A stretch of 64,000 nt of DNA. It comes from Linanthus parryae. Taxonomy: Eukaryota > Streptophyta > Magnoliopsida > Ericales > Polemoniaceae. The position numbers were made by a program, and so were the translations under genes. The notes beneath the pieces were generated by a model. It saw nothing but the letters and a program-made list of their open reading frames with translations, was not told where the DNA came from and made no database searches. Below are positions 6,039 to 62,653 of this stretch, in pieces. Each line of letters begins with the position of its first letter. The first letter of the stretch is position 1. The stretch spans positions 115,299,504-115,363,503 of the forward strand of contig JALGPY010000004.1 of assembly GCA_023055425.1 (NCBI GenBank), read 5' to 3'.

Positions 6039-6039
6039 G

Positions 6040-7893: not shown

Positions 7894-7898
7894 GCTGC
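7894..7898. other. Target-site duplication of element D, left copy
   Basis: gctgc here and again at 22553-22557. The uninterrupted site is visible in B2 near 29380 (tagctgccatgaac), which has a single copy. This proves D inserted into B1. Confidence 0.95.
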
Positions 7899-8525
7899 TG
7901 TAGATAGTGCTTTCTGAGCTGACAGATCTTGGCCACGTGGCAACCATCCAGCACACCATATTGTGCTCCACACACACTGGATCACCAGCCGAGCTGATCC
8001 ATGTGGGGGCTGCGAGACAGAGCCCTCGCATACCACCGCACGGGACTTGTAGGGACTTAGTGGTTTGGAGGCTAGAGTAAGCCATGTCGCGTGCGAGCCA
8101 AGCCCGCGCGCGACCTTTAGTAACTGTTTTGAGAGATTTGTGGCACGAGCTCCATAAACCAGGTCAATCCGGTCAAACCCGGTCAACCTCGTAACGGTTC
8201 CGGTATTCGCGCACAACGTGCTGTAACGGTCCCTATATACTCGGACGAACGTGCCGTTATGGTTAAGCTAATTAAGCCGCCATCAATGGGCGCATTAACC
8301 ACACTACAACGGTCACGTTCTATGCTATATATAGGACGTTAACCTTTCCATACAAAGGAGAACACACTGGCCATACGCGGAAGCTCTGCCAAACCTCTGT
8401 CTCTCTCTCAGACATTACTACTGCCTTACTCTCTCCCTACACACAACCCAACTCTTCCTGTGCGATCCCAGATCCTCTACATACGGTGTACACGGAGGTC
8501 TCCCCGCCGGAATCTCTTGTGCACA
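7899..8525 (+). repeat. D 5' LTR (627 bp)
   Basis: TGTAGATAGTGC to CTTGTGCACA. Identical in length to 21926-22552. It carries a TATA box (ctatatata, 8325-8333) and four AACGG boxes upstream. A CT-rich stretch downstream of the TATA box (8398-8440) is probably in the transcript leader. Confidence 0.93.
8191..8335 (+). promoter_or_regulatory. D LTR promoter: TATA box with four AACGG boxes
   Basis: AACGG cores lie at 8191-8200 (gtaacggttc), 8223-8232 (gtaacggtcc), 8253-8259 (reverse, ccgttat) and 8308-8316 (caacggtca), followed by ctatatatagg at 8325-8335. The same four boxes and the TATA keep their order in the diverged LTR of element I (62936-63080). AACGG is the core of MYB-bound mitosis-specific activator (MSA) elements; that regulatory reading is inference. 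Confidence 0.55.
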
Positions 8526-8528
8526 TTT

Positions 8529-8546
8529 TGGTGAACCCGACGTGAA
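8529..8546 (+). other. D candidate primer-binding site
   Basis: TGGTGAACCCGACGTGAA begins three bases after the LTR. It starts with TGG as primer sites do, and the same stretch is conserved with small changes in element I (63264-63282). I cannot assign the tRNA. Confidence 0.45.
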
Positions 8547-8565
8547 CTTACCAACAAAAGCAACC

Positions 8566-10239
8566 ATGTCTCAGGAGGACGATGTTAGCAACCGATCACC
8601 TTCCACCGAAACTGCCTCGGGAGAGGAGACCCGCCGTACTCCTGCGACCCCCAGCGAGGCACCGACACTAGAATCCTTGGATGCTACCGTCCAAGGTCAG
8701 GCGAAAGCTCTCAAAGCTCAATCTGCGCAGCTAGAACGGATCTTGGCCGTTCTGGGCACCCTTGCACCAAATCCTTCAGCAGCCACTGCCGTCTCTCAAG
8801 GAGGAGGAGGCCCTACCGCTCCAGGATTGGGAGTGTCCACCACACCTCCCAACCCTAACCTGCAGACTCTGCCGGCGACTACGCAGCTGCCTTCGATCCA
8901 GGGGTCAACAGCTCAGATGTTGCCTCTCACTGCTCACACTCAACCTCCGGCTTTGGCATCCAACCCAGCTCTGCAGTACCCCTTGCCTCCTCCAACGGCA
9001 ATCTGGGGCAATGCGAGCAGCCAATATGTCCCCAATCCTTCGGTGGCATATGTGTCACCTCCGCCTGCGGCAACCCCTCCTCCTGCTACCGAGGGAAGCA
9101 TCCCAGAATGCATGACGTCTCTGCAAAAGCGCATGGACACTATTCTGGCTCACCAGTCATTCGCGGATACCATTATCCCGAAGCTAGACAACGATCCACC
9201 CATCCCGCGGGAGATCTATCTCATGCCTAACCCGGCGGGGTATAAGGCTCCTAAATGGGACAAGTTCGAGGATGTCAACGGGAACGCTCATGAGCATGTC
9301 ATGCGTTTCATTGATGTCATGGGGCCATACGGAGCTGATCCCAAACTGCTGATGCGAGAGTTCCCAAAATCTTTGGGGAACGTAGCGTACAAGTGGTACC
9401 GAACGTTAGAAGCCGGATCCGTGAAGACTTGGGACGACATGGTCCAGAAGTTCTACACCAAGTTCTTCCAGATGGAAGAAAAGGTGACAATGATCCATCT
9501 CTCGCGGATGTATCAGAAGCGCGAGGAGGATGGGATCACTTTCATCAAGACATTCAGGGCGAAGTCCTTGGAGTGCAAAGATCCAATGCTCGAAAGCCGG
9601 CTCGTAGAGATATGCCTGCAGTGCATGCGAGACGAATACAAAGGTATGCTCATCAATTTGCAAACACCTACGTTTTCAAATCTAATTGAATGCACGAAGA
9701 ACATCGAGCCTATAGTCGAGAGGCAGAAAAAGAAGAACGCTCCGGAGCGACCTTCGAGCGGCACCACCTACAAGATCGGGAGATTCAGTTACAAGAGGGG
9801 ACGCGAAGCTGAGGTCAATACAGTTTCACCCCAGAAGCAAGCGAAGGTTGTGAACTTCGATGTACCACCTCTGCCTTGCTCGGTAGAGGAGGCAAGCGAC
9901 CTTTGCAGACAGTGGCGCAAGGACGGTGTCCTGCCACCGCTCGAGAAGATACCCTCCAAGGAGATGGTGAGGAACCCTAAGTGGTGCGAGTACCACGGCA
10001 AGGTCATGCACCCCACAGCGGAATGTAAAAAGCTCAGGCTTACATTCGACCAGAAGATGAAGAACGGCGAGCTGATCGTCAGTGATCGCAGGAAGGATGT
10101 GCGCAACAATCCGCTTCCTGCCCATGCGGAGCAAGACCCAAAAGGCAAGGAGGTTGCCATGATCTCGATTGTCGACTTGGAAGAAGTCGCAGAGGATGGT
10201 CTACCCATCATCGCCGAGGTCCACGATGACGAGGACTAA
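8566..10239 (+). CDS. gag: Gag polyprotein of element D
   Basis: An intact 557-residue frame. I chose the ATG at 8566 because its context (aaccATGtc) is good, no ATG precedes it in frame, and the related gag in element I starts at the matching place. The N-terminal 60 residues are acidic and Ser/Thr-rich. Next come a short helical, Gln/Ala-rich stretch, a long Pro-rich linker to about residue 180, and then the retrotransposon capsid region (about 215-390) with the usual Trp-Tyr-Arg and Phe-Tyr-X-Lys-Phe motifs. Near residue 474 is a zinc-knuckle variant, CEYHGKVMHPTAEC, with Cys-His-His-Cys ligands as in other plant gypsy Gag proteins. It would form the virus-like particle and bind the RNA. 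The stop lies two bases before the pol ATG in another frame. Confidence 0.9.
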   Translation: MSQEDDVSNRSPSTETASGEETRRTPATPSEAPTLESLDATVQGQAKALKAQSAQLERILAVLGTLAPNPSAATAVSQGGGGPTAPGLGVSTTPPNPNLQTLPATTQLPSIQGSTAQMLPLTAHTQPPALASNPALQYPLPPPTAIWGNASSQYVPNPSVAYVSPPPAATPPPATEGSIPECMTSLQKRMDTILAHQSFADTIIPKLDNDPPIPREIYLMPNPAGYKAPKWDKFEDVNGNAHEHVMRFIDVMGPYGADPKLLMREFPKSLGNVAYKWYRTLEAGSVKTWDDMVQKFYTKFFQMEEKVTMIHLSRMYQKREEDGITFIKTFRAKSLECKDPMLESRLVEICLQCMRDEYKGMLINLQTPTFSNLIECTKNIEPIVERQKKKNAPERPSSGTTYKIGRFSYKRGREAEVNTVSPQKQAKVVNFDVPPLPCSVEEASDLCRQWRKDGVLPPLEKIPSKEMVRNPKWCEYHGKVMHPTAECKKLRLTFDQKMKNGELIVSDRRKDVRNNPLPAHAEQDPKGKEVAMISIVDLEEVAEDGLPIIAEVHDDED

Positions 10240-10241: not shown

Positions 10242-11174
10242 ATGGACACAGAAGACGAAAGTGCCGATCGGATGAAGGGGTCGCACGGCTTTAGCAGATT
10301 CTTCGACGAGATGAACTTCTCCGAGAAGTGCCGGACAGATATGACGAAAGCAATCTTGAGAATAGCGGAGGACTACGAGGAGGATCTTGTAGTTTCCAAA
10401 GGGAAAGTCATCAGGGCGTCTCGCTCTACAGAAAAGATTATGACCTTTTCTGCCAGCGACAAGAAGACAGATGCGAGCCACCAGAGGCCTCTGTACGTGA
10501 CGGCCATCATCAATGGCGTCGAGTTTAAACGAGAATTCGTTGATGGAGGAGCAGCGGTCAACGTCGTTTCGCTCCACACACTGAAGCTAGCAGGGATCCC
10601 TGAGCACAAGATCGTCAGGCGTCCATCTCCGCTGATGGGATTCGGAAGCGACTCTAGAATGACGATCGGATGGATCCGCCTGGGCGTTCAGATTGGCAAA
10701 ATCAAGTGCTCAGCAAAGTTCTATGTCATAGACGCAAACACCACATATCACATGATCATAGGTCGAGCCTGGATTCATCGCTTCGATGCGGTTCCTTCAA
10801 CGGCTCACCAGGTTATGAAAGCTATCTGGAACGACAGAGTAGTCGAGATACCGGCTTCAACGAATCCATTCAACTTGGATGAAGCACATCTTAGCGAGGC
10901 AGTGTGGTTCACCGAGATGGCGGACGAGCAAATGCCGGGACCATTCAACCCTACTCCTTTGCCTCTCTGGGAGGACATCAAGGATCAGTCACCTGCAGGA
11001 GTAATGGTGACAAGGGAAGATGCCAAAGAAAAGCCGCCTACACGCGAAGAGGCGTCGCGTATCACATACCATCGAAAGAACGTGTACACTCTGAAGAGAA
11101 TCGCAAAACATGACCCTGAAGGCAAGGAGATAGAGAGCTTCTACGCCAATAGGAAGAAGTGCTATCGCATATGA
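10242..11174 (+). CDS. pol: Pol, N-terminal part: aspartic protease of element D
   Basis: 310 residues, starting two bases after the gag stop in a different frame. The retropepsin active site is FVDGGAAVN (Asp101-Gly-Gly), the DGG variant common in plant gypsy elements. The second half of the fold ends at the hydrophobic motif MIIGRAWIHR (171-180), equivalent to the usual I-L-G-R-P-W-L-H. It would cleave the Gag-Pol precursor. The frame ends at a TGA (11172-11174), but the downstream RT frame (from 11187) is in the same phase. The stop therefore either splits an originally single polyprotein or is a later mutation. Confidence 0.85.
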   Translation: MDTEDESADRMKGSHGFSRFFDEMNFSEKCRTDMTKAILRIAEDYEEDLVVSKGKVIRASRSTEKIMTFSASDKKTDASHQRPLYVTAIINGVEFKREFVDGGAAVNVVSLHTLKLAGIPEHKIVRRPSPLMGFGSDSRMTIGWIRLGVQIGKIKCSAKFYVIDANTTYHMIIGRAWIHRFDAVPSTAHQVMKAIWNDRVVEIPASTNPFNLDEAHLSEAVWFTEMADEQMPGPFNPTPLPLWEDIKDQSPAGVMVTREDAKEKPPTREEASRITYHRKNVYTLKRIAKHDPEGKEIESFYANRKKCYRI

Positions 11175-11186: not shown

Positions 11187-12752
11187 ATGTCCTCACACGG
11201 GCATGGGGATATCCCTGGGCAAATCAATCAAATCGAGCAAATTTCGCTGACGGAAAAGCCAATCCAGGGCGCTCCAGACGAGAAACTCAAAGAAGCACCC
11301 GAATACATGGAAGATAGGCCCAGACCAAAAAAGCAAGAGCTAAAGGAAGTGTCCCTCAGCCCGAACGAGGAAAAGAAAAGGCCAGTCTTTCTAAGTGCGG
11401 ACCTCACAAGCGAAGAGGAGCAGGGACTGCTACAGCTCCTAACTGAATACAAGGATGTGTTCGCATGGGAGTATGATGAGATGCCAGGACTGGATACAAG
11501 CATCACTATGCACCGCTTAGACATCATTCCAGGGTCTAAGCCGGTAAAGCAGAGCACAAGAAGCTTCAGGCCGGAGCTTAACGTGAAAATCAAACAGGAG
11601 ATTGTCAAACTCCTGGATGCCAAGTTCATAGAGCCGAATCATCATCCCACATGGCTGGCCAACATCGTGCCAGTGGTGAAGAAGAACGGACAGCTTCGCA
11701 TCTGCGTGGACTTCCGAGATCTCAATCGTTTCTGCCCCAAGGACGATTTTCCAGTGCCCAACATCGATTTGCTTATCGATTCAACAGCAGGCCATCGCAT
11801 GTTCAGTTTCATGGACGGCTTCAGCGGGTACAACCAGATCAAGATGGACCCTGAGGACGCTCGGAAGACTGCATTCATCACTCCGGTGGGGGTGTTCAAC
11901 TACACGGTGATGCCGTTCGGTCTCAAAAACGCGGGTGCAACCTATCAGCGGGCTATGATGGCCCTATTCCACGACATGATGCACAAGGAAGTGGAATTCT
12001 ATGTGGATGACCTGGTGGTTAAATCCAAACACGAAGCAGACCACCTCGCGGATTTGCGGAAGGTGTTCAATAGATGTAGACGCTTTCAACTAAAGATGAA
12101 CCCTATGAAATGCGCATTTGGGGTAACATCAGGGAAATTCTTGGGATGCGTAGTTCATCGCCAAGGAATCGAGCCTGACCCTGCGAAAGTATCAGCCATA
12201 ACCGGCATGACGCCGCCCCATAACCAGAGTGCCTTGAAGACATTTTTAGGAAAGCTATCCTATCTGCGGAGATTCATCCCAGCGATTGCCGAAATCACCT
12301 GCTGTTTTAGTGCCCTTCTCAAGAAAGATGCCGTATACAGCTGGGCTCCGGAGCACGAAGCTGCATTCGAAAAGCTGAAGGATCTGCTGATGTCCTCGAA
12401 AATAATGATCGCACCTCAACTGGGATCACCGCTTCTGCTATATCTGACGTCAACAAGGAGATCCATAGGAGCACTCTTGGCTCAGCAGTACGAAGGCCAG
12501 GAAAGGCCTATCTACTACATCTCTCGCATCGTGCAGCCTGCTGAATCAAGGTACACAGACATCGAACGTCATTGCCTTGCTTTGTTCTTCGTAATAGAGA
12601 AATTGAAACACTACTTTGCGTCGCATAAAGTAGTAGTGGTCACCAAAAGCGATCCCATACGATATCTGCTAACTCACACTACTCCTGGCGGGAGATTGGC
12701 GAAATGGTACATGACCATCTCTCAATATGATATCACATGCGCGAGACCGTGA
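11187..12752 (+). CDS. pol: Pol, middle part: reverse transcriptase and first RNase H of element D
   Basis: 521 residues. The RT fingers and palm are complete: RICVDFRDLN (171-180), FMDGFSGYNQI (208-218, first catalytic Asp), MPFGLKNAGATYQR (242-255) and the catalytic FYVDDLVVKS (271-280). The connection region contains FLGKLSYLRRFI. The gypsy RNase H follows from about 400, with LLLYLTSTRRSIGALL, where family members have a catalytic Asp (D-A-S/T) and this copy has Thr-Ser-Thr, and YTDIERHCLAL. It copies element RNA into DNA and degrades the RNA strand. It ends at TGA 12750-12752, in phase with the next frame; the residues just after the stop read AIKSQAVADLLAQF, the usual link to the second RNase H, so this stop interrupts pol. 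Confidence 0.9.
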   Translation: MSSHGHGDIPGQINQIEQISLTEKPIQGAPDEKLKEAPEYMEDRPRPKKQELKEVSLSPNEEKKRPVFLSADLTSEEEQGLLQLLTEYKDVFAWEYDEMPGLDTSITMHRLDIIPGSKPVKQSTRSFRPELNVKIKQEIVKLLDAKFIEPNHHPTWLANIVPVVKKNGQLRICVDFRDLNRFCPKDDFPVPNIDLLIDSTAGHRMFSFMDGFSGYNQIKMDPEDARKTAFITPVGVFNYTVMPFGLKNAGATYQRAMMALFHDMMHKEVEFYVDDLVVKSKHEADHLADLRKVFNRCRRFQLKMNPMKCAFGVTSGKFLGCVVHRQGIEPDPAKVSAITGMTPPHNQSALKTFLGKLSYLRRFIPAIAEITCCFSALLKKDAVYSWAPEHEAAFEKLKDLLMSSKIMIAPQLGSPLLLYLTSTRRSIGALLAQQYEGQERPIYYISRIVQPAESRYTDIERHCLALFFVIEKLKHYFASHKVVVVTKSDPIRYLLTHTTPGGRLAKWYMTISQYDITCARP

Positions 12753-12782: not shown

Positions 12783-14996
12783 TTGGCACAGTTCCCCGAC
12801 AACAGCCACGAGCCCGTGATCGAAGAAGAGCTCGAAGGACCTGAAATCTATGCAATCGACGTGCCTTATTGGACGCTCCATTTCGACGGGTCGTCAACAA
12901 GAAAAGGCGGAGGCATTGGGATAGTCTTGACCAAACCAGATGGAGAGGTCATACAGATGTCCGCAAAGCTCGACTTTGCAGTCACCAACAACGAGGCAGA
13001 ATATGAAGCCCTCATAGCGGGACTGCGCGCGGCAAAAGCTTTGGAAGTAAGCAATTTGACGGTCATGGGAGACTCCAAGTTGATCGTCAAACAAGCCTCG
13101 GGCGAGTACGGTTTGAAGGAGATTAACCTTCTGTCTTACCGGACTCTAGTACAAAAGCTGGTACAGCAATTCTGCGATGTGAGGTACAAGCACAAGCCCC
13201 GAGCAGACAACAGGCATGCAGACGCTTTGGCAACCTTGGGTTCTAAAGTCAGCACAGACAAATGTCCCGCAAGGATCTCCATCGAAGTGCGAACATCGTC
13301 GGCATTGACAGAAGACGTGTGCGACGACAAACACATGGATGACACGGACTGGAGAAAAGCAATCCTACAAGCTATTGCAGAAGGCACAAGCAGTGAAAGC
13401 TGGACACTCACAAAGGGATACTGCATACACGACAACACCCTTTACTACAAGGGCCCTAGTGGAATACTCATGCGATGTGTTTCCGAGCAAGAGGGACAAC
13501 GGTTGTTAGAAAAGATTCACCAACATGCTTGCGGAGAAAGTGAGGTGTCAATCTACCGGAAGGCTCAGAGATATGGCATTCATGGGCCAGACATGTCAAC
13601 AGCCGCGGCCCTGATACAAGGGAAAGGGGAGAGTTGCGCACTAATCAAAGATTCTCTACTCATCGCTCTAGCTGATGATGACACGGATTGGAGGAAGCCA
13701 CTCTTTGATTTTCTCACCCAGGGCACCGTGCCCGAATCGAGCGAGAAATTGAAGAGGAAAGCATCTCGATATATAGTACAGGAAAACCTTCTGTGGCGAA
13801 GAGGTCATGAGGGCAACTTGCTGCGATGTCTAGACGGCAGAGAAGCACAAGAAGTCATGGACCTTTCTCATCAGGCGGAACACCAAGGAGGTGCGAAATT
13901 ATGCAGGCAGCTCCTCTCAATTGGATATTTCTGGCCCACGATGGAGGCTGATTGCCGCATCAAAGTACGGCGCTGCCAGGAGTGCCAATTCAAAGGAAAT
14001 CTAGTGCACGCTCCCGCCGTGGATCTACATGCATTAGGAACACCATGGCCATTTCACACATGGGCTCTGGACTTCATTGGTCCCATCCGACCAACGTCAC
14101 ACGGGAATCATTTTATTCTCACTGCAACTGAGCTATTCACCAAATGGGTGGAGGCAATACCACTGAAGATGGCAAATGCGCTAGCCGTGGTCAACTTCAT
14201 TCAAGAAAACATCATATGCAGGTTCAGAATCCCAAACACCATTCTTTCAGATAACGGTACTCCCTTTGTTAATCGCCAGGTAGCTGCGAAGTTAGCAGAG
14301 TACAACATCAGGCAAATATGTTCCACCCCTTACTATCCAAAGGGGAACGGGCAAGCCGAAGCGACCAACAAAACGCTGTTGAGGATTTTGAGCAAGATGG
14401 TTGCAGATGACCACAAGAAATGGGCTGATTCTCTAAGCGTAGCTCTGTGGGCTTACCGAACTTCTCCAAGGACACCCACGGGGGCCTCACCATTCTTACT
14501 ATGCTATGGGGCCGAAGCCGTGGTACCTGCGGAGGTGAGAATCAATTCGGCAAGATTGGCCTTCCACGCACTCTACGAAAATCAACGTGATCATGACTTA
14601 GTCTTGCTGGACGAAAAGCGAGAACAAGCCAAAAGGACCAACAAGCGGTATCAAGAAAGGATTGCTCGCGCTTACATAAGACGGTCCAGCGAAGAGATTT
14701 CGCAGTTGGAGACTTGGTCCTGCGCGCATCTGACCACTGCATGCGAGAAGCGGCTCACCCAAAGTTCGCAGCCAATTGGGAAGGACCCTTCGAAGTCACA
14801 GAAGTCTTTGACAGTGGCTACTGCAGCATACGAAGGTTGCACGGCACGACCTCAACCCCGAGTTCAGTCAACATGCGCTGGATTAAGAAGTAGTATCCCT
14901 GACTTCTCTCATTTCATGCGTTTTATTATAACGTCGCTTAATGTCTTGTGTGGCTACGATTTACACAATCTCCTCTCCCATATGAGAGGATTGTAA
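12783..14996 (+). CDS. pol: Pol, C-terminal part: second RNase H and integrase of element D (frameshifted end)
   Basis: In phase with the RT frame. Residues 28-155 form a complete second RNase H: HFDGSS (Asp35), NNEAEYEAL, GDSKL (Asp97) and ADAL (Asp146). This extra domain marks Tat-type elements. A zinc-binding H2C2 module (about 298-405; HQAEH, CQEC) is preceded by a second, degenerate copy of the same module (186-285). The integrase core has WALDFIG (Asp430), ILSDNG (Asp490) and GQAEATN (Glu526), giving D-D-35-E. A one-base frameshift near 14675 derails the C-terminal domain. The expected continuation, with DLVLR and NWEGPF motifs, reads in another frame and stops at 14891-14893. The tail from about residue 631 to 14996 is therefore out of frame. 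Confidence 0.88.
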   Translation: MAQFPDNSHEPVIEEELEGPEIYAIDVPYWTLHFDGSSTRKGGGIGIVLTKPDGEVIQMSAKLDFAVTNNEAEYEALIAGLRAAKALEVSNLTVMGDSKLIVKQASGEYGLKEINLLSYRTLVQKLVQQFCDVRYKHKPRADNRHADALATLGSKVSTDKCPARISIEVRTSSALTEDVCDDKHMDDTDWRKAILQAIAEGTSSESWTLTKGYCIHDNTLYYKGPSGILMRCVSEQEGQRLLEKIHQHACGESEVSIYRKAQRYGIHGPDMSTAAALIQGKGESCALIKDSLLIALADDDTDWRKPLFDFLTQGTVPESSEKLKRKASRYIVQENLLWRRGHEGNLLRCLDGREAQEVMDLSHQAEHQGGAKLCRQLLSIGYFWPTMEADCRIKVRRCQECQFKGNLVHAPAVDLHALGTPWPFHTWALDFIGPIRPTSHGNHFILTATELFTKWVEAIPLKMANALAVVNFIQENIICRFRIPNTILSDNGTPFVNRQVAAKLAEYNIRQICSTPYYPKGNGQAEATNKTLLRILSKMVADDHKKWADSLSVALWAYRTSPRTPTGASPFLLCYGAEAVVPAEVRINSARLAFHALYENQRDHDLVLLDEKREQAKRTNKRYQERIARAYIRRSSEEISQLETWSCAHLTTACEKRLTQSSQPIGKDPSKSQKSLTVATAAYEGCTARPQPRVQSTCAGLRSSIPDFSHFMRFIITSLNVLCGYDLHNLLSHMRGL

Positions 14997-15109: not shown

Positions 15110-15660
15110 ATAGCAATCTCTATATATGCGATCTTAATTGATCATCCAAGCCTATCTGTTACATAGCAGCCTATGCAAATGCGATCTTAATTGATCATTT
15201 AAGCCTATCTGTCACGATAGCAGCCTATGCAAATGCGATCTTAATTGATCATTTAAGCCTATCTGTCACGATAGCAGCTCATGCGAAATGCGATCTTAAT
15301 TGATCATCTAAGCCTATCTGTCACGATAGCAGCCCATGCGAAATGCGATCTTAATTGATCATCCAAGCCTATATGTTACGATAGCAGCCTATGCAAATGC
15401 GATCTTAATTGATCATTTAAGCCTATCTGTCACGATAGCAGCTCATGCGAAATGCGATCTTAATTGATCATCTAAGCCTATCTGTCACGATAGTAGCCCA
15501 TGCGAAATGCGATCTTAATTGATCATCCAAGCCTATCTTTTATGATAGCAACTCATGCAAAATGATCGTAATTGATCTCCTAAAGCCTATCTGCTACGAT
15601 AGCAACTCATGCGAAAAATGATCTTAAATGATCTTCCAAGCCCATCCGATATGATACAAC
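15110..15660 (+). repeat. 54-55 bp tandem repeat, about ten copies, in D
   Basis: The unit reads tgcgatcttaattgatcat, then aagcctatctgtcacgatag, then cagcctatgcaaa. Successive gcgatc anchors lie at 15128, 15181, 15235, 15290, 15345, 15399, 15454 and 15509, with diverged copies at about 15562 and 15618. Each unit includes the palindromic AATTGATCATTT-like core and an inverted ctatc/gatag pair. Tandem arrays downstream of pol are known in Tat-type elements. Confidence 0.9.
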
Positions 15661-16909: not shown

Positions 16910-17385
16910 TCAAAGCAAATTCTTGATCAAGGAGTCGTGGGGCGCGAACTGATGGCTCAGCTTCTCTACCTGCTCCACTTCTTGTTTCAGTTGCTCGCAC
17001 TTGGCATTCATCTCATGATATAGCTTTGTAGCTTCTTCAGCCTTTTGCTTCTGCTGCTCCACCTTCTGCTTTTCAGCTGCGAGGTTCTGGTGGCCGAGCT
17101 TCAAAGTTACGGCCGCGCGAATCAGAGTAACTCTTTTCATAAGAAATCTGAAACCCAGTCTGCCTTGGACTTTGGTAAGAAGATTTTGGCACATGCCACA
17201 AAGCAATTCGGCACTCTGGACAGAAATGGTCGCAGGCGTAGCCGCAGATAGCTGCTCCAAAATCCAAATGGCTTCGGTAAGAAACAGCCTCCTGTCAAAG
17301 GGTCCTATCTCCAGAGATCTTGCAAATGATCGGGGGTAGGTGAGGCGCATCCGAACTAGCCAGTCCACATCAGTTTGCTTCAAAC
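16910..17385 (-). CDS. Antisense gene exon 5: conserved-looking helical region and coiled coil
   Basis: 476 nt after acceptor tttag; the split glycine codon joins exon 4 cleanly to GLKQTDVDWLVRMRLTYPRS. A helical middle (FLTEAIWILEQLSAATPATI) is followed by a heptad-like Lys/Glu/Gln stretch (about 60 residues), suggesting oligomerisation. TGA stop at 16912-16910. Confidence 0.65.
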
Positions 17386-20300
17386 CTAAAGCAATGTCAA
17401 AGCTAAGTTATGCTATCAAACTCGCAAATAAACAATGTGAGATGCAAACAGCGAATCACTACTTACCAGTGCCTTCAAGAATCTCGCGAAGAGAAGGAAT
17501 GCGCATTACTGGAGTAGTCGAAGACTGCCCTTGCTCCATGGCTCTCCTGTCAGCTGCGAGCTCTAACCCCTCATAGTTAGGAGGAAGAGTATAAGCCGCA
17601 CCAGCTGCGACTGCATTCCCGACCTGCGAGCCCCAAAAGCTCCACGCAGGAAGAAGTGCCGCCGACTCAGTCATCGCCGGAGGCGAAGTGACAATCGAAG
17701 ATGCTTGGCGTGGGACGCTCTCAGATGCGGAAGCATCGGCAACACTTGTTCTTACTTCCTCAGCGCCAGTATGGGCATCTTCCTCCATTAGCACAGCGTC
17801 AGCTTCAGCATCATCAGAAAGTTCGATGATGTCCTCAAGAGGCTCTCCTGCGTATTCAGCAGCTGCGACGGGCTTCTCGGAATCGGAACATAGGACGCGG
17901 AAGGCTGATTTCTTTGCTCCAGCGCAGGTTCCTCAGCATTGCCTGCGATATTAAATGCGATAGTGTGAGGTAACTCGTATTACAAGTTATTTTACTATCT
18001 TTACTAAAGCTAAGAGCAAGCACCTCCACGCGAAGGTGGGATTGAAGTATCTTCGTCATACACTAAAGACGTGGAACCATGCCCTATTAGTGTGTCCTCA
18101 TTAAGCAGGTCCTTAAAATGAGCGTGACCTGGGACGCGAAGAAACCAGTCATGTTTCTGTTTCAAGTTGCTAAGGTCTAGTACATGCATATCGCTCAAAT
18201 GATTACCTGAAGGTTCTCCGCACTTGCCTACTAGCCAACGGCGAATGTCAGCCTTTGACACACCATGCTTTAACGCACCCACAATAATATCTCTATAAGT
18301 TACTGCGAGATTGAAGATCTCACCTTTATCGCCGCCTGCGATTTCTTCAAAGTCTGCTTGGGCTTGCTCCAGGGCTGCTGCATCCTCTTCTGGAACCGCA
18401 TCCTCCTCCTCCGCCTGAGGAGCCACTACTTCGGGAAGCACATCTTCCTCGTCAACTGGACGCACTAAGTCGTCAACATGTTGCTCTTCGAGGCTCCGCT
18501 GTCTCACACGCTCGAGCTCCTCCTCCTCCCGCTGCCTTCTCCTTTCAGCAGCTTCCGCGGCTGTCTTCCGGGACTCAGCAAGAACGTCCTCGCTTATGGG
18601 ATCGTCTGGAATGCCAGAATGGGTATCTCTCTTTTGTCTCTTGGCCAAAAGGCCACCGATGATTTCATCATCATCATCATCATCTGCGAAGATATGATTG
18701 GTTTAAGAAAGAATTGCAAAAGAATTACGATAATGGGAAAGGAAACGCGACGGAGGTACCTCCTGATTCTTCCTCATGCATCACCACTGTTCTTTCTTCT
18801 TCTTCTTCATCACTTTCTCTGGGCTCCTGCCTCTCTCCTTCTTCCTCCTGGTTGAATGGAACGAAAGTCTCAAATGCGAGCTCTTTCCGCACTTTGCTGG
18901 GCATGCGACCTTTGCCTTTATCCTTGATAGAAAGGGACCTCGCCGGAGGAGAAGTTGGAGCACTTCTGGGGGAAGAAATTGTAATTCCCTTTTGCCTGGG
19001 TCTCTTCACTCTCGGCGCCGCAGTCGCTGGAGGGGACGGATCACCTCTGGGAGGAGACGAGGCCGGAGCATTGTCTATCAGCGAGTCAGCAAAAGCGTTC
19101 ATGACTGCGCGAATCCTGGTTTCGACCTCAGGGTCCATCCTCCATGCTAGCAGGAACGGCTGCTTTTGTCTTCTGGTGGCAACAATGGTGTTAACCAATG
19201 ACTTGGAGCGATCACCAGATGCGAATCTCCGCACATGACACTACAGCAAACAGTACAGAATAAAGGCGTCAGCATAAGGAAATCAAGAAGCTTAACGCAC
19301 GCGGAAAAAAATTGCTTACCTTAGCAAATGCCTCGCTATATCTGACGACATGCATGTCGCCCTTCTTAACTGCGGCGACCTTCTCCTTCAGAATGACGTC
19401 AGGACACAAATGGTTCTCACGATCCAACAGTGAGTAGCAACCATATTCAGACTCGCTCAGGCTGCAATTGGGGCAAAACGGAAAAGAATTTCTCTTGATC
19501 AAGGGAGCTCTACTTGGCTGCGCGGCCAACTGCGTCTCAATCCTCGTTTGCTGGGCGACCCAGTATGCGAGCCAGTTCTGGGAACAACCACCCTCGCAGG
19601 TCCCTGCAGGCTGCTCAAAGGGAAGATTGTTCATGAAGACTGTCTTGCACTCCTTTGTTAGCAAGCGCTTATATCAACCTCTGATAATGGACTGGGGCCA
19701 GATTGATGGTGCCACTGCATCAAAGCCGAACTGGGGAGAAACTCGAGTGGGGTCAACATCCACGGTAATCCTCTCATACCTTGGCGCGAGCTCACGAATA
19801 TGCTCTGCAAGGGCAGGAAGGGAACCTCGTAGACACCAGCAAAAGAACTCGCGATAGCGCTCATGGAAATGCGATCCCTCTTCAAAGAGGAGCTCTTCTG
19901 AGAAGACAACACCCTTAGAGGGATACAGCTTTGGAAACCATCGCACGTTCTCAATGCGTGTGGCATAGGGCCTGGCAGTAAACTCTTTCCGTTTGTCGCA
20001 TATCAAGCTCCAAACGCACTTGGTATTGTTCGCTCCGAACCACCTCGCTGCCTTGCCGCTGTTACGCTCCTCCGTCTCGCCTGGGGGACACCACTTGTCG
20101 GGTTTGAGAGCAGTTGGAGCATAGGATGGCCATCGCTCGAAAACCCACATTGTCAAAAAGGAAATGTTGACAAAAGTCAGTACATCGAGGCGGCCACGCG
20201 ACTCTTTCATGGCTAGAACCAGCTGATCAAGCCTATAGTACAGCGTGCCCAAGACCAAGGGTCCGAGTGCGACTCTCTGGCCAAGGGCGAGCCTCACAGC

Positions 20301-21200
20301 AAGTGCCAAAACATGGTAGAAGACCCCATTATGTGGGTGACCGTCAATTAAGTACCTCGACAACCAGGCACAGAGGAAAGCACAAAGGGTCAAGTGATAG
20401 CCTTTACCCTCCACGTAATTCTCGGCCTCTGGGTTCTCACTCAGAAGCTTCTTAGTGATGCTGCTGTTCGCATAGTCTCGAAAGAAGTACTGCAACCATT
20501 TGTTCCAGGTGTTCTTCGCATACGTATCAACCAACTGCCAGTTCGGAAGAGCTTTGGTAGTAGTCCACCGGGTGGAGATTTTCTTTACCTCTGCTAAGCA
20601 TTCCTCCATCTGCGTGTACAAAGCAATCTCCGCAGCCGTCCTCAAAGGACTCAAAGGGTCCACCTCGCCCATGGGAGAAAGATCGTACAGCATATGCACG
20701 TCCTCGAGTGTGGGGGCAGCTTCGAACTCAGCAAAGTGGAATGTGTGTGTCGCAGGCGAGTAGCGGGAAAGAAGGTCTAGAAGCATGGACTGATCTAGCT
20801 TCACGGCAGCACCCTTCATAGCACGAACAGCGAAGTATACGCCGGCTTCATCAAGATTCGCGGTATGATTGGTCAACACATGGTCAATCCACTCATCCAT
20901 GTAGTCCAATTTCTGGACAAAAGCTTGGGTAGAAATCGCAGTGTAGGGGAAGTACCCATTTTCGATTCCCAATCGAACCACATCCTCGGAGCCAATTAAC
21001 TCGAGCAAGGCTGAGTTAACCGGGCGAGTCAGTGTTAGCAATCCCTCATTTGGGACAGGGGCAGGCATTTTCTTCGCCTTGACCCTCGCATGGTAGAAAT
21101 CTTTGCCACCTAGATAGGGGGCTTTTCGCCACAAAGCCTGCGGAAGATCGGGTATCTCTTCATCCTCCTTGGTGGGTTTGGTTCCTTTTGTCTTGGCCAT
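16910..21200 (-). CDS. Antisense five-exon gene encoding a plant mobile domain (PMD) protein, one in-frame stop
   Basis: Five exons on the minus strand: 21200-19320, 19240-18760, 18683-18024, 17931-17467 and 17385-16910. The introns are 79, 76, 92 and 81 nt, all GT-AG, with donors GTAAGC, GTACCT, GTGCTT and GTAAGT; phases are 0,1,1,1. The joined exons total 3,963 nt, exactly 1,321 codons, and the only internal stop is the TGA at 19674-19676 in exon 1. That coherence argues strongly for a real spliced gene. Exon 1 is the PMD; exons 2-4 are charged and low-complexity with NLS-like KRPRQK; exon 5 ends in a coiled coil. PMD occurs in MAIN/MAIL1-type host proteins that act in silencing and in several plant transposons. 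Antisense ORFs between pol and the 3' LTR are known in Tat elements such as Grande. Its role in D is unknown. The acceptor of intron 3 (gctgag) is my frame-based choice. Confidence 0.78.
17467..17931 (-). CDS. Antisense gene exon 4
   Basis: 465 nt, phase 1 to phase 1, with donor GTAAGT at 17466. Acidic first half (EEDAHTGAEEV), then Ser/Ala-rich, ending MRIPSLREILEGTG. The exact 5' edge is uncertain. Using acceptor gctgag at 17933-17932 keeps the frame open, whereas the stronger-looking cgcag at 17944-17943 would run into a stop near 17790. Confidence 0.55.
18024..18683 (-). CDS. Antisense gene exon 3
   Basis: 660 nt, phase 1 to phase 1. It starts with an aspartate run encoded by a (GAT)n stretch, then an Arg/Glu-rich helix (AAERRRQREEEELERVRQRS), an acidic stretch, and a more ordered part with DIRRWLVGKCGEPSG and HDWFLRVPGHAHF. 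Not a domain I recognise. Confidence 0.65.
18760..19240 (-). CDS. Antisense gene exon 2
   Basis: 481 nt, entered in phase 0 and left in phase 1 at the GTACCT donor. It begins CHVRRFASGDRSKSLV. A central Pro/Ser-rich part carries RVKRPRQKG and KDKGKGRMPSKVRK, plausible nuclear localisation signals, and it ends in a glutamate-rich stretch (about 18770-18850). No known domain recognised. Confidence 0.65.
19320..21200 (-). CDS. Antisense gene exon 1: plant mobile domain (PMD, aminotransferase-like fold)
   Basis: The ATG at 21200-21198 opens 508 codons to a TGA (19676-19674). The same frame then continues for about 118 codons to the GTAAGC donor at 19319, so the exon is 627 codons with one stop. 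PMD hallmarks are the segment THTFHFAEFEAAPTLEDVHM (151-170), followed by LYDLSP; a hydrophobic run CAFLCAWLSRYLIDG; LGTLYYRLDQL; and WVFERWPSY. The N-terminus is Lys-rich (MAKTKGTKPTKEDEE). I see no membrane segment or signal peptide. Beyond the stop, CPNCSLSESEYGCYSLLD contains a Cys pair. The TGA could be a CGA that mutated at a methylated CpG, giving a truncated 508-residue protein. The full fold through the PMD lies before the stop. Confidence 0.75.
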
Positions 21201-21624
21201 CCCTGCGGAAGAGCAAGAAAAAGGGGGGAGAAATATGCTACTTCAGTTTGAATTTCGAGATTCAAGATCTATGAAAAGAAAGATGAACAGTTTCTGGTAT
21301 CAATCTCAGAAATTAGAGGGTTGCATTATCAGGGATTTCAAAACCCTATCCAAGGTCCTTATTATTGAAGGATTAAGCCGCAATTGGGTCCAAAACTTGA
21401 AGCTTCTTCACAAGTTTCAACAGATTATATGGGTTTACAGAATCAACGCAGTTCAAGGCATACACTGGTATTTTAAATCGAAATTGAACAAGCCAACCTT
21501 GTTTTCGCGAAGCTTGCTTGGATATGCACAGTTGAAGAAGACGATTTGCAGTTCTGAACTGATGGTTGATTATTTGAATCTGCTCTCGAAGATCTCCGGG
21601 TACCATTCACTTTAAGAGAAAGAA

Positions 21625-21790
21625 GTGATGCTTCGCAACAATGGAGGATACAAAGTATTTATCCAAAAACAATGAAGGGTTGCGTCCTTTCAGTAGTCGA
21701 ATCGCAACCGTCACCGTCGAATCGCGCAATCACAGGACAAGCTGACGTCACGCCTAAAACCCTAAAGGCCAGACGACACGACTCTAGGGG
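21625..21790 (-). promoter_or_regulatory. Candidate promoter of the antisense PMD gene
   Basis: Read on the minus strand, upstream of the ATG at 21200 there is a TATA-like ggataaatac (21655-21664). Upstream of that are a perfect palindrome TGACGTCA (21743-21750), the bZIP/CRE-type core, and a telo-box AAACCCTAA (21756-21764). A second partial telo-like motif (aggggttttagg) lies near 21785. The order fits plant promoters, but transcription is not shown. Confidence 0.4.
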
Positions 21791-21910
21791 TTTTAGGTCA
21801 TAATGGCACGCACGGGGGCTGAACTTACCCGTATTTGAATTGGTGCGTGGCGGCGACGCGTATGTTGGTTTCCGCGCATGGAAGTCTATACAGCTATGAG
21901 TCTTCACGCG

Positions 21911-21925
21911 CAGAAAGGGGGCTAA
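21911..21925 (+). other. D polypurine tract
   Basis: cagaaagggggctaa lies immediately before the 3' LTR, the expected position of the plus-strand primer. Confidence 0.75.
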
Positions 21926-22552
21926 TGTAGATAGTGCTTTCTAAGCTGACAGATCTTGGCCACGTGGCAACCATCCAGCACACCATATTGTGCTCCACAC
22001 ACACTGGATCACCAGCCGAGCTGATCAATGTGGGGGCTGCGAGACAGAGCCCTCGCATACCACCGCACGGGACTTGTAGGGACTTAGTGGTTTGGAGGCT
22101 AGAGTAAGCCCTGTCGCGTGCGAGCCAAGCCCGCGCGCGACCTGTAGTAACTGTTTTGAGAGATTTGTGGCACGAGCTCCATAAACCCGGTCAATCCGGT
22201 CAAACCCGGTCAACCTCGTAACGGTTCCGGTATTCGCGCACAACGTGCTGTAACGGTCCCTATATACTCGGACGAACGTGCCGTTATGGTTAAGCTAATT
22301 AAGCCGCCATCAATGGGTGCATTAACCACACTACAACGGTCACGTTCTCTGCTATATATAGGACGTTAACCTTTCCATACAAAGGAGAACACACTGGCCA
22401 TACGCGGAAGCTCTGCCAAACCTCTGTCTCTCTCTCAGACATTACTACTGCCTTACTCTCTCCCTACACACAACCCAACTCTTCCTGTGCGATCCCTGAT
22501 CCTCTACATACGGTGTACACGGAGGTCTCCCCGCCGGAATCTCTTGTGCACA
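21926..22552 (+). repeat. D 3' LTR (627 bp)
   Basis: Matches 7899-8525 with about eight single-base differences by eye and no indel. Followed by the second gctgc target copy (22553-22557). Confidence 0.93.
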
Positions 22553-22557
22553 GCTGC

Positions 22558-25500
22558 CATGAACTCTGAGCTTTGGAAGCAAGAAGAGAAACATGGAGAT
22601 ATATAATATGATCATACATTGAAAGAAACTCTTTCAAAAGAGCGAGCTAAACATGAAATGTTTGAAGTGTTGCTCCACTTTGCGTTATGCAAATAAGCTA
22701 ATTCAATATGATTGAAACATTAGTGAATGGGCATTATCTATGAGATAGATAAAGAATAAACGGTTATTCACCCAAGTGGACCAAGAATTGCCTTGGATGC
22801 AATTATAGTTTTGTTTTAAAGTTGATTTACTCAATATGATTGAAAAATCACTAAACAGAACACTGATAATGGGCATGGGCAAAGTTGTTAAAGGTTAACA
22901 ACATGGGTAAGGGCAAATGGTTTGCGCCGAACCCATGGGTATAAAGCGAGCCTGTTGCTGAAGCCAAGTTGCCTTAAAGTCCCATGGGTAGTGTAAAGGA
23001 AGAGAGACTACCCAAAGTACATGGAAGTAAGTAATAATGGAATTGTGAATTCCAATTTAGGTATTCTTGTTATAAAATTCAATGTGTCTATCTCATCATC
23101 AAGAGTATATGATACTAGATGAGGATCTCACATTTATAGAAATGTGGAGGGTCTCAAGAGATGGAGACAATTGGATAAGGAAGAAATAATCCTACGCGTG
23201 GGGCTATGAAGCAATGGGTTGTTGAATAAGCCGTAGGGAATTATTTCTACCTTTATGAAATTGTTCATGAAATAGACAAAAGTGATTATGTCCCTGCTAT
23301 GAGTAGGATCATTATCATATTTTCTTGTTCGGACAAGAAAACTCTCTATCATAATAAAGGAAAAATGTTGTTCCATTTATTCTAATAAGCATTATTGTAA
23401 TGCAATTTTGTCTAAGAGGATTGTATATCCTTGATCATGATAATTTCATCTATAACATTAATACCAAGAGGTTTGCATATCATGATATGAACTTCAATTA
23501 TCTTTAGCATTATCGTTTAGGCCCCATAAATAAGAGATACATATCTAGAACTCCATAAGGATGGATTTCTGGAACTCATTTGATTATTGAATCATATGAG
23601 ACATGTAAGACTTACTAGGCAAAGATATGATCTTTTGGGAATCATACATATTGATGTATGAAGGCCGCTAAGCACAAAAGCTAAAGATGGTTTTCAGTAC
23701 TTCATCATATTTACTGATAGGATCAGAGAAATATGGATTTGTGTATCTTATGAAGAAACAAATCAGAATCCTTTTGAATTGTTCAAAATATTCAGGAATG
23801 AAGTAGAGAACAAGCTTGGCAAAAGTATTAGGGCTCTACGATTGGATCGTAGAAGAGAGTACTTGAGCCAAGAGTTTGACAACAATCTATGGGAGTGTTG
23901 GATATGATCTAACACTCGCTCCACCTAGCACGCCACATGGGTTTGGAGTGTCTAAGAGGAGATTTCGAACCTTGTAGGACACGGTTCGGTCCATGATGAG
24001 TCAAACAGGACTTCCAGTTTACTTTTTGGGGCTATGTTCTAATTACAGCAAATTTTGCCCTTAACCTTGTTCCATCAAAAACGGATTATGAATAACACCA
24101 TATGAGATATGGACTAGGAAATGTCCTAGTATGTCATTCATAAAGATTTGGGGTTATGAAGTTTATGTAAAAGAGTTTACAAATAAACTTGGACCCAAGT
24201 CGGATAAATGTTTTGTGGAATATCCTGGAAAGGATATTATTTCTACAACCTAATCGAGAACAAACTGTTTGTTTCTTGAACCACAGTGTTTCAATGTAGA
24301 GATTGTCTCTAAAAGAAACAGTGGGAGGACAGTAGAAATTGAAGAAGTTCAAGAACCACAACAAAATATTGATCCTTTTGATGGAACATGAGCAGGATCA
24401 CAAGGTGTTGTGGAGCAACCTACTCAGATAACACAAGAACCTCGTAGGTAAGGTAGGATATATCAAGGAACTAGAGAAATAAGAATTTTCCATAACCCCT
24501 GATATATTGCTCATCAAGATGAGCCTACAACCTATGAGATGGCCACGTGTGGCCATACTCTCATAAATGGCTTGGAGCCATGAGATACGATATGGAATCC
24601 ATGTGTACCAACAAAGTATAGACTTTGATGGAACCACCTGAAGGGTAGGACCCATAGGGTGCAAGTGGGTTATGAGGAAACCAACATGGATGGTAATATG
24701 ATTACCTTTAAGGGAAAATTGGTAGGAAATGGATTTCATGTGAGCTCGTAGTATAGACTATGACAAAATCTTTCCCCAATTGTGATGCTTAAATCCATTC
24801 GTATCTTGCTTGTAGCAATCTGTCTAGATTGAATCAAGCTTCTAGGAGTTGGACTCTTCAAATTCATGATGCAATCAAAGGAATTTGGTTCCATCAAAAT
24901 TGAAGATGAGACTTGTGTTTACAAGAAGGTTAGTGGGAGCATACAATTATTTTTCTGGTCTTGTATGTGGAGACATACTTAATCATTAGGAATGTTGCCC
25001 CTACTTGGCAGTCTTACGCAGATTGACTAGGGAATTGATTTTCTAATGGTAGACTTAAGCGAAGCAACTTGTGAAGATCTATTGAGGTAGATCAAGATGG
25101 TTGTATAGCTTAGGTAATAGTACATAAATTGACAAAGGTGTTGAAATGGTTCAACGTGAAAAGAATATTGATTCTTACCCATGTCACATGGAATTAGTCT
25201 TTGGAAGGCTAATTGTCTTTCCAATTAGATTGGGAATGGACCGTATGAATTAGATTCACGAGATACGCCATGGAATGTACTAGACCAGATGTGTCATAAG
25301 GCATGAAACAAAGATACCAGTCAAATCCGGGTGAGAGTCACTGGATAAATTATCAAGATTATCCTTTAGTACTTGAGAAGCACTAAGGATGAATTTTGAT
25401 AAATGGAAGATACGAAGAGTTTATTGTAAGGGGTTTCAGTGATGCGAACTTCAAATCTGACAAAGAAGATTCAGATTACAAGTCGAGTTTTGAGTTTTGC

Positions 25501-25754
25501 TCTAGTGGGAGCGAATGTGAGCTGGAAAGGTTCTAGGCAAGATTCAGTCACTGATTCTAATATAGAGGACTGAGTAAATTAATACATAAGATGCATTTAC
25601 TCAGAATATTCAATCTCAATCAAATTGTTGATAGAGGAGATGTGAATATTTGCAAGGTACCATCAGAGTCTCGCCCCTGCGCAGCGGAAGCGAGGACCGC
25701 GCTAGATCAATAGGCATATGATGCAGGAGATTGACTCTAGTGCAAGTGGGAGAC
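22558..25754 (+). pseudogene. B1 decayed gag-pol remnant
   Basis: Continues the gag relic after D. Nucleotide traces of copia protease and pre-integrase (about 23040-23530), integrase core (about 23640-24110; short peptides such as the HID, GFQYFI and EYLSQEF equivalents), connection region (about 24330-24480) and RT start (about 24560-24800) occur in the right order, but stops and shifts break every frame. The same lesions recur in B2, for example a TAG in the stretch accttgtaggacac (about 23970 here, about 30906 in B2). An AAGTGGGAGAC purine tract closes it at about 25744. Confidence 0.65.
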
Positions 25755-27313
25755 TATTGGAATTGTGCCCTAGAGGCAATCAATTAATTGTGACATTTAT
25801 GGATCTACGATTCATTATGTTATCGATATGGAGATATGTTAACATGAATGAAGTCCTTAGAATATAAGTGTTATATTCTTAAATATCCATAATCGATTAT
25901 AATGATTAATAGGACAATCATCTATAGACTAGTATGGGGTTGGATTGATATGGAGATATCATGATCCAACACATGGGTATGCATTGGGAGTAATGGCATA
26001 CTGGATTGACCCATCTCCGAGAAGGCTACATACACGTTATGTTAAGTCACAAGCGCTTCTCGCGGTGCAACGGTATTGTCATCCTTAGACTTGAAGTCAC
26101 TAGATATTCTAGTTGTGGATTATTGTGATTTTGGTAGCGTTAAACGCTACACCGTAACTGGGGAGTTATAAAGGCGTGTACTGGATACAATAAGAAGCAA
26201 TCTTAGAGATCGTAGTGGACGTAGATAGGATTTGTCCCTCCCACATAACGGGAGCAAATATCCTAGGCCACTCGAGGGATAGTGCTTATAAAATGTCTGG
26301 CCAGACTCAAATAAATCAATATGGGATATTGATGTTATTTGCACGAATAAGTCTATTCCCAGGATCGAGAAACTATGGATTGGATATACGAGTGTGACTT
26401 GTATGTCTCGTGTCCAATCCGGATATTGAGACAAAGGGATGAGATAATTACTTGCACAAGGTTTGTCATGATGACTATTCTATTTGTTGGCTAGAATGGA
26501 TGTCTTGCTAGAGGTCGCTCCATATTAGTAAATTGTTACTACCAACTAAATAGAACCTATGGGGTCACACGCCATATAGGGGTGAACTAGACATGGGAAT
26601 TAATTAATTAATATGATTAATTAATTAAAAGGATCAAATCACAACAACTTGCTAACTTAGTAGGACTAATATGCAAGTTGGACTAATCCATGTATAGACA
26701 TGATTAGGATATGCCAAGGTGGCCTAATTCATGTAGAGACATGATTAGGAGTAATTTGCAAATAGAACTAATCCATGTATTGACATGATAAGGACTATTT
26801 TTGCAAAAAGGGACTAATGCGAACTTGAGTAGGATTAGGAGAGGGGTTCTTTATGTAGTAGGACAAGGAGTTGTTGGACTATATAAAGGAACACTCCTAG
26901 CTTATTTTTCTCTCTACACACCACACATCTATATGATAGAGTAGAAGAGAAAAAAGAAAGGAGAGAGAGAGCAAGCCCCAAAAGGGCCGAACCCCTTGGG
27001 GATTGCCGCCCCTACCCGTCGGCCATGAAGAGTGCCGCCCCACCTCTTGGCACTCCATTGTTGCTTGGTTCCTTCTTCCTCCTCAATTCTTCCTAGATAG
27101 CACATGGATTTGGAGGATCTAGATCTCACCTATAGGCGTGGATCAACTGTAGATACGTGACACAATTCGCGTTTGAAGTCATCAAAGGAGAACCCTAAGG
27201 TGTGTTATTGATTTCTTCCTTTACCATCGTTATGTCTCTTGACTTGTGATCCTTGGAGGGTTTTGCATGGTTTATTTTGTTTCCGTTGCGCATCCATGAA
27301 TCAAAACCCAACA
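25755..27313 (+). repeat. B1 3' LTR (1,559 bp)
   Basis: Starts TATTGGAATTG (TG mutated to TA) and ends AACCCAACA. TATA box at 26879-26889 (ctatataaagg). It shares its tail variant (ttattgatttcttcctttacc) with the B1 5' LTR. It is followed directly by another LTR tail, not by a target duplication. Confidence 0.85.
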
Positions 27314-27512
27314 TCTAGATCTCACCTCTAGGCGTGGATCAACCGTAGAGACGTGACACAATTCACGTGACAAGTCATCACAGGAGAAACCCTAAGGTGT
27401 GTAACATGATTCTTCCTTTACCATCGTTATGCTTCTTGTCCTGTGATCCTTGGAGGGTATTGAATGGATAAATTATATTATTCCGCTGCGTATCCATGAT
27501 CAAAACCCCACA
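27314..27512 (+). repeat. B2 5' LTR tail
   Basis: Aligns with the last 196 bp of the B1 LTR, but its variant (gtgtaacatgattcttccttt) matches the B2 3' LTR at 48090. It ends accccaca at 27512. Confidence 0.8.
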
Positions 27513-27513
27513 G

Positions 27514-27525
27514 TGGTATCAGAGC
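27514..27525 (+). other. B2 primer-binding site
   Basis: TGGTATCAGAGC, one base after the LTR tail. Confidence 0.85.
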
Positions 27526-62620: not shown

Positions 62621-62653
62621 GTGGAGCTTAATCACTTATGCTCGGATTATAGA

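What the first reader, a model, noticed from the sequence alone, without database searches (positions are those of the whole stretch)
16910..21200. A spliced antisense plant-mobile-domain gene carried inside a young Tat-type retrotransposon
Seen: five minus-strand exons with four GT-AG introns of 76-92 nt join into exactly 1,321 codons with one internal TGA. Frame is kept over all four junctions, including three phase-1 introns that split glycine or aspartate codons. Exon 1 has clear PMD motifs (APTLEDVHMLYDL, WVFERWP). Known: PMD proteins such as MAIN/MAIL1 act in plant transposon silencing and genome stability, and PMD is also found in transposons. Antisense ORFs 3' of pol are known in Tat elements, but a long multi-exon PMD gene with NLS-like and coiled-coil extensions is a specific claim. 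Inference: because introns survive, the gene cannot be expressed from the genomic (sense) RNA. It must have its own promoter and act in cis or trans, perhaps against silencing or as a regulator of the element.
Basis: partly seen in the sequence, partly recalled or inferred. Interest (0 to 1): 0.87.

Follow-up and report, generated by a model that had tools for sequence, protein, structure and literature searches.

The report
Spliced reverse-strand gene inside plant retrotransposon
A plant jumping gene carries, on its reverse strand, a five-exon gene for a Plant Mobile Domain protein, and comparison with other copies in the same genome shows that selection kept this protein intact while the element multiplied.

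Summary
The window holds a 14.65-kb Tat-type Ty3/gypsy element (LTRs 7899-8525 and 21926-22552, TSD GCTGC, additional RNase H before integrase). Between pol and the 3' LTR, on the minus strand, lies a five-exon gene; exon 1 matches Pfam PMD (E 5e-27). In 20 other copies from the same genome the ATG and all four donors are kept in 20 of 20, and the acceptors in 20, 19, 20 and 20 of 20. dN/dS over the five exons is 0.23 (0.15-0.33 by exon), against 1.15-1.24 in shifted frames and 0.10 for pol. Variants shared by three or more rows are N:S 50:102 with 0 stops; private ones 345:235 with 20 stops. The whole spliced protein, not only the PMD, was under purifying selection in the transposing lineage.

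The real site is 17943, and this copy has a private 13-nt deletion that shifts its frame, besides a private stop; it is dead. The family's chain is about 1,328 codons.

PMD genes in Gypsy elements and antisense genes in Tat elements are known. I found no report of an intron-bearing antisense PMD gene with a selected 700-residue extension. Promoter, nuclear location and counter-silencing remain inferred.

The parts
7894..7898 (.). target-site duplication, left copy (GCTGC)
   Evidence: identical to 22553-22557; empty site in a related stretch at 28980-29508, 88% across the joined flanks
7899..8525 (+). 5' LTR, 627 nt
   Evidence: 8 differences to the 3' LTR, TG...CA ends
8542..10239 (+). gag ORF
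   Evidence: Pfam Retrotrans_gag, E 8e-7
10242..11174 (+). protease ORF
   Evidence: Pfam Asp_protease E 2.6e-4, below the curated cut-off
11187..12752 (+). reverse transcriptase and RNase H ORF; its end stop at 12750 is private to this copy
   Evidence: Pfam RVT_1 E 3.6e-30; stop absent in 8 of 8 copies compared
12783..14996 (+). additional RNase H then integrase ORF; C-terminal part looks frame-shifted (read by eye)
   Evidence: Pfam RVT_3, Integrase_H2C2, rve in this order
15126..15646 (.). tandem array, 55-bp unit, 9.6 copies
16910..17385 (-). exon 5 of the antisense gene, with the final stop 16912-16910
   Evidence: dN/dS 0.151 over 190 pairs of copies
17386..17466 (-). intron 4, 81 nt
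   Evidence: GT and AG in 20 of 20 copies
17467..17942 (-). exon 4, corrected start 17942; 13 nt missing at 17881/17880 in this copy only
   Evidence: dN/dS 0.334
17943..18023 (-). intron 3, corrected, 81 nt
   Evidence: best local acceptor; GT and AG in 20 of 20 copies
18024..18683 (-). exon 3, acidic repeats and a basic patch
   Evidence: dN/dS 0.296, first 33 nt (GAT repeats) left out; patch identical in 16 of 20 copies
18684..18759 (-). intron 2, 76 nt
   Evidence: GT in 20 of 20, AG in 19 of 20 copies
18760..19240 (-). exon 2, with a basic patch
   Evidence: dN/dS 0.292; patch identical in 15 of 20 copies
19241..19319 (-). intron 1, 79 nt
   Evidence: GT and AG in 20 of 20 copies
19320..21200 (-). 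exon 1 with the Plant Mobile Domain
   Evidence: PF10536 E 5.2e-27; dN/dS 0.178
19674..19676 (-). premature TGA, private to this copy
   Evidence: no stop there in 20 of 20 copies
21201..21925 (-). antisense leader: acceptor ending at 21203, candidate donors at 21828 and 21497, TATA-like motif at 21662
   Evidence: GT at 21828 in 29 of 29 rows with letters there, AG at 21203 in 30 of 30 rows
21926..22552 (+). 3' LTR, 627 nt
22553..22557 (.). target-site duplication, right copy

Best explanation
The element family carries a real five-exon antisense protein gene between pol and the 3' LTR. It encodes about 1,327 residues: an N-terminal Plant Mobile Domain, a middle part with basic (NLS-like) and acidic patches, and a charged, probably helical C-terminus. 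SHOWN: the anatomy, conservation of the splice sites, and purifying selection on all five exons in the lineage that transposed. INFERRED, in falling confidence: (1) it is transcribed antisense from the leader next to the 3' LTR or from within that LTR, as a spliced mRNA, probably with a leader intron ending at 21203; (2) antisense placement is what lets the introns survive the RNA phase, because in the sense RNA they read backwards; (3) the protein is nuclear and keeps its own element transcribed, most likely by interfering with host silencing that itself uses PMD proteins (MAIN, MAIL1, PP7L); (4) it benefits mainly the copy that encodes it, since a freely shared product would tolerate more damaged parents. 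My odds: coding gene under selection 0.95; spliced antisense mRNA 0.85; nuclear accessory regulator 0.6; counter-silencing specifically 0.4. The copy in the window is dead.
For: PMD domain. Splice sites in 20 copies. dN/dS 0.226 over 190 pairs, 1.149 and 1.241 in shifted frames; pol 0.099 in 8 copies. Shared variants N:S 50:102 with 0 stops against private 345:235 with 20 stops, Fisher p 6e-9; exons 2-5 alone 43:62 against 205:123, p 2e-4. Shared changes by codon position 28, 23, 101. 13 of 13 frameshifting indels counted in the exons up to 16915 sit in single rows. Independent insertions: 27 of 29 copies reach the outer LTR edge, flanks at most 43% alike. Host PMD proteins in TE silencing and the counter-silencing proposal: PMC5418596, PMC8616336, PMC7156037 (passages). 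An antisense promoter is reported for maize Grande gene23 (PMC7264820, section 8).
Against: No transcript data. Only 3 of 20 copies have the whole chain open (corrected). Private variants have N/S 1.47, below the neutral 2.58, so they are a mixture. Constraint is weaker than in pol. The leader and LTR differ little among copies (about 0.026), so their conserved motifs say little. Five of 20 copies share a 1-nt insertion at 16914 just before the stop. No structure or binding evidence. Function of the PMD itself is unknown.
Confidence: 0.6

Rival explanations
1. The protein serves the sense life cycle rather than fighting silencing: nuclear import of the cDNA complex, RNA packaging, or choice of insertion site, through the PMD and the helical C-terminus.
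For: Selection on the extension as well as the PMD; exon 5 has the lowest dN/dS of the five (0.151); retroviral accessory proteins as analogy (PMC7264820, passages).
Against: Not directly testable here; host PMD proteins are linked to silencing and gene expression rather than to integration.
Confidence: 0.3
2. The antisense RNA itself, not a protein, is what matters: it pairs with the sense RNA and tunes silencing; the open frames are by-products.
For: Such a role has been suggested for antisense transcripts of plant elements (PMC7264820).
Against: Constraint follows codon frame in all five exons and vanishes in shifted frames; shared changes by codon position are 28, 23, 101. Introns diverge like synonymous sites (0.07-0.10 against 0.10). 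A protein and an RNA role could coexist.
Confidence: 0.04
3. A captured host PMD gene carried as a neutral passenger and decaying.
For: The window copy and most fetched copies are broken; the one stop here matches the 0.97 expected since insertion.
Against: Changes older than single insertions show strong constraint and no stops in 152 shared two-state sites; splice dinucleotides of introns 1, 3 and 4 intact in 120 of 120 cases.
Confidence: 0.02

Closest known systems
Gypsy-encoded Plant Mobile Domain clades PMD-A1 and PMD-A2 (PMC5418596)
   Same: PMD domain carried by a plant Ty3/gypsy element.
   Different: Clade not tested here (no labelled sequences held). The passages seen do not describe a five-exon antisense gene or a selected extension.
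PMD-bearing extra ORFs of Tat/Ogre elements (PMC6317226: 57% of Ogre elements)
   Same: Tat clade; PMD in an extra ORF outside gag-pol.
   Different: Those were called as single open frames of at least 250 codons; here only exon 1 would pass, exons 2-5 (160, 219, 163 and 158 codons in the family) would not.
Antisense ORFs between pol and 3' LTR of Retand elements, mostly with Transposase_28 (PMC11963269); maize Grande gene23
   Same: Position, orientation, nuclear-regulator idea; Grande gene23 has its own antisense promoter (PMC7264820).
   Different: PMD instead of Transposase_28 (not among the Pfam hits); intron-bearing.
Host PMD-C proteins MAIN, MAIL1, MAIL3
   Same: Domain only.
   Different: Host genes acting in TE silencing; this one is element-borne and selected in the element.
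HTLV-1 HBZ (named from recall and from PMC11963269)
   Same: Works like: antisense accessory gene of a retroelement; spliced antisense message (splicing recalled).
   Different: No relation by descent claimed; a start in the 3' LTR is not shown here.

Membership tests
Plant Mobile Domain (PF10536) | match above the curated score | tested here: met
   95.4 bits against 34.9; profile positions 5-292 of 347; C-terminal end of the profile not covered even with the stop masked
Gypsy PMD-A clade | grouping with PMD-A in a labelled tree | not testable with these tools
   no labelled PMD sequences; homologue searches empty
Tat clade of Ty3/gypsy | additional RNase H, in angiosperm elements between RNase H and integrase (PMC6317226) | tested here: met
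   order RVT_1, RT_RNaseH, RVT_3/RNase_H, Integrase_H2C2, rve
Ogre or Retand lineage | position in an RT/RH/INT tree; PBS type | not tested
   RT relatives found but none labelled by lineage
[quoted passage not shown]
   20 of 20 fetched copies, chosen by similarity to exon 1
Tat element with antisense 3' accessory gene | antisense transcript with these junctions | not testable with these tools
   no RNA data
Spliced protein-coding gene | conserved splice sites and frame-specific constraint across all exons | tested here: met
MAIN/MAIL-type silencing factor | nuclear, bound to PP7L-type phosphatase, acts on TE silencing | not testable with these tools
   basic patches only

The most novel reading that the evidence does not exclude
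An LTR retrotransposon family keeps a complete intron-bearing antisense gene as its own counter-silencing regulator: antisense placement shields its introns from loss in the RNA phase, and the PMD protein acts preferentially for its source copy against the host's PMD-based silencing pathway.
Probability: 0.3. Interest if true: 0.85.

Novelty: new variant of a known kind. Interest (0 to 1): 0.62.

Why it matters
Surveys of extra ORFs in plant retrotransposons look for single open frames (at least 250 codons in PMC6317226, 600 bp in PMC11963269), so an intron-bearing accessory gene is cut at its first intron and about half of it is missed. A five-exon antisense gene that selection kept through repeated retrotransposition shows that a retroelement can maintain an intron-bearing gene, and it makes testable what element-borne PMD proteins do, in a family with thousands of candidate matches in one genome.

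Tried and rejected
Before any copy was seen, codon usage placed the change of frame at about 17916-17877; the deletion found later at 17881/17880 agrees. Homologue searches with exon 1 and exons 1-3 gave none at E <= 0.001 among 7,993 candidates each, so there is no cross-species comparison. Scans of viral contigs and genome contigs gave no relative. PDB sequence search: none. Fold prediction of residues 101-508 without relatives had mean pLDDT 38, so no fold search was made. The first pol alignment had unaligned ends and gave dN/dS 0.426; it was discarded and redone on aligned parts only (0.099). Of 12 pol stretches fetched, 4 had no match and 8 were used. One search flagged 4 of 20 copies as fully open; one is an artefact of my acceptor search in the copy whose intron-2 AG is lost, so 3 of 20. 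The neutral N/S of 2.58 used a leader in which one copy (L034) is not homologous. The exon-5 motif count failed (gap column in 19 of 20) and is not used. L051 and L052, two other PMD genes of the genome, are a different single-exon family. Weak Pfam matches below cut-off (DUF7745 in exon 1, BORCS6 in exon 5) are not used as evidence.
Full report
WHAT THE ELEMENT IS. The window lies in a 1.51-Gb genome. Two 627-nt direct repeats, 7899-8525 and 21926-22552, differ at 8 sites, begin TG, end CA, and are flanked by GCTGC on both sides. The joined flanks match a stretch at 28980-29508 at 88% across the junction, an empty site. Inside lie gag, protease, RT with RNase H, a further RNase H and integrase. 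An additional RNase H between RNase H and integrase is the mark of the angiosperm Tat lineages Ogre and Retand (PMC6317226, passages); which of the two was not tested. A 55-bp tandem array lies at 15126-15646.

CHECK OF THE OBSERVATION. Exon 1 matches PMD, E 5.2e-27. Scored with a recalled plant consensus, the claimed donors rank first in 4 of 4 intron regions and the claimed acceptors in 3 of 4. A codon model trained on exon 1 and the sense genes puts the claimed frame first in exons 2-5. From the TGA on, a stop-free chain through up to four GT-AG introns reaches 2,465 nt; 40 shuffles average 334, maximum 803.

THE CORRECTION. For intron 3 the best acceptor is 17943, not 17932. With it this copy's frame is lost in exon 4, and codon usage suggested a change of frame near 17916-17877. 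The other copies settle it: AG at 17943 in 20 of 20, and this copy alone lacks 13 nt at 17881/17880. The TGA in exon 1 is private too: no stop there in 20 of 20. Usual exon lengths in the copies are 1881, 481 (478 in 8 of 20), 657, 489 and 476: 3,984 nt, 1,328 codons with the stop.

SELECTION. One search had 7,060 first-look candidates for exon 1 and scored the best 40, of which one is the window. The next 20 by score were fetched over the gene (L031-L050). They are 93.9-97.0% identical to the window in the best BLAST piece. The ATG and the four donor GTs are kept in 20 of 20, acceptor AGs in 20, 19, 20 and 20 of 20. Pooled over 190 pairs, dN/dS is 0.226 (dN 0.023, dS 0.101); by exon 0.178, 0.292, 0.296, 0.334, 0.151; shifted by one or two bases 1.149 and 1.241. 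Introns diverge at 0.070-0.097, near the synonymous level. Among two-state sites in 21 rows, variants private to one row are N:S 345:235 plus 20 stops; variants in two rows 37:50 plus 1 stop; variants in three or more rows 50:102 with 0 stops. Private against shared gives Fisher p 6e-9, and for exons 2-5 alone (205:123 against 43:62) p 2e-4. The neutral N/S from noncoding private changes is 2.58, so even private changes include older, selected ones. The 13 frameshifting indels counted up to 16915 are each in one row; a 3-nt deletion shared by 8 rows is in frame (the GAT repeat at the head of exon 3 was left out). Beyond that limit 5 of 20 copies share a 1-nt insertion at 16914, next to the stop. 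The whole chain is open in 3 of 20 copies (corrected). For pol, 8 copies give dN/dS 0.099.

Older, inherited differences avoid amino-acid change and carry no stops, while recent private ones do. So copies decay after insertion, but the copies that begot new insertions had a working protein, exons 2-5 included. Constraint is weaker than in pol. The copies were chosen by DNA similarity to exon 1; this favours young copies but not synonymous over non-synonymous change.

AGE. LTR divergence K is 0.0129; at half of that per branch the gene should have gained about 0.97 stops and gag-pol about 1.5. This copy has one in the gene, and in pol two in-frame stops (11172, 12750) of which 12750 is private (absent in 8 of 8) and 11172 was not covered. 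Its lesions fit decay after insertion.

LEADER. Upstream of the ATG are a strong acceptor ending at 21203, a strong donor at 21828, a weaker one at 21497 and a TATA-like motif at 21662. In 29 copies plus the window, GT at 21828 is kept in 29 of 29 rows with letters there and AG at 21203 in 30 of 30. LTR and outer leader diverge at only 0.026, the inner leader at 0.047, so this is weak evidence. Antisense transcription is inferred; maize Grande gene23 is a precedent (PMC7264820).

WHY INTRONS SURVIVE. In the sense RNA these introns read as reverse complements and are not expected to be spliced, so reverse transcription copies them intact (established splicing logic; inference here).

WHAT IT DOES. 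Host MAIN and MAIL1 act in TE silencing with PP7L, and a counter-silencing use of TE-borne PMDs has been proposed (PMC5418596, PMC8616336, PMC7156037; passages). Basic patches in exons 2 and 3 are identical in 15 and 16 of 20 copies. I favour a nuclear accessory regulator that keeps its own element expressed, counter-silencing being the likeliest form (0.4). The scarcity of inherited damage suggests that the product benefits mostly its own copy; few active parents would look similar. A part in import or integration stays open.

NOVELTY. PMD in Gypsy elements and antisense genes in Tat elements are known (passages of PMC5418596, PMC6317226, PMC9289625; parts 1-3 of 5 of PMC11963269; passages and section 8 of PMC7264820). 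Steinbauerova 2011 I know only from citations and recall. In the listings, and in the papers opened, I saw no multi-exon antisense PMD gene in a retrotransposon; the library lacks most subscription journals, and PMC5418596 used a gene predictor, so exon structures may exist in its data.

LIMITS. One genome, no transcript, no labelled tree, a recalled splice consensus, and copies from the top of one similarity list.

Noticed in passing
G000 contig C57, 126.33-127.71 Mb (about 11 Mb from the window): 46 of 127 PMD matches listed (counted by hand) lie in this 1.4 Mb, many without stops and at regular spacing: a large tandem array of PMD genes; smaller groups near C46:155 Mb and C2:29 Mb. Whether host genes or element-borne was not tested.
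   Followed up: no
L051 and L052 (G000 C46:90.46 Mb, C2:46.68 Mb): Another PMD family: single open frames of 978 and 990 codons with a PMD, a basic patch and a helical, charged C-terminus, 84% alike over 4.8 kb; only 21% identical to the window's PMD. Same layout without introns.
   Followed up: partly
window 22552-16910: Divergence among copies rises inward from the 3' LTR: LTR and outer leader 0.026, inner leader 0.047, synonymous 0.08 in exons 1-2 to 0.17 in exon 5. Could be recombination between lineages, or constraint on LTR and leader.
   Followed up: no
window 62653-63281: A diverged relative of this element's LTR (70-74% identity) near the window end; the PMD chain finds no second gene in the window at a significant E-value.
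   Followed up: no
window 4480-7898, 22690-32202, 46666-48205: The element sits inside a repeated unit (Ty1/copia-like by its ORFs, read by eye) that recurs at about 21-kb spacing.
   Followed up: partly
window 16487 (minus strand): A second TATATA motif downstream of the antisense gene with only short open frames after it.
   Followed up: no
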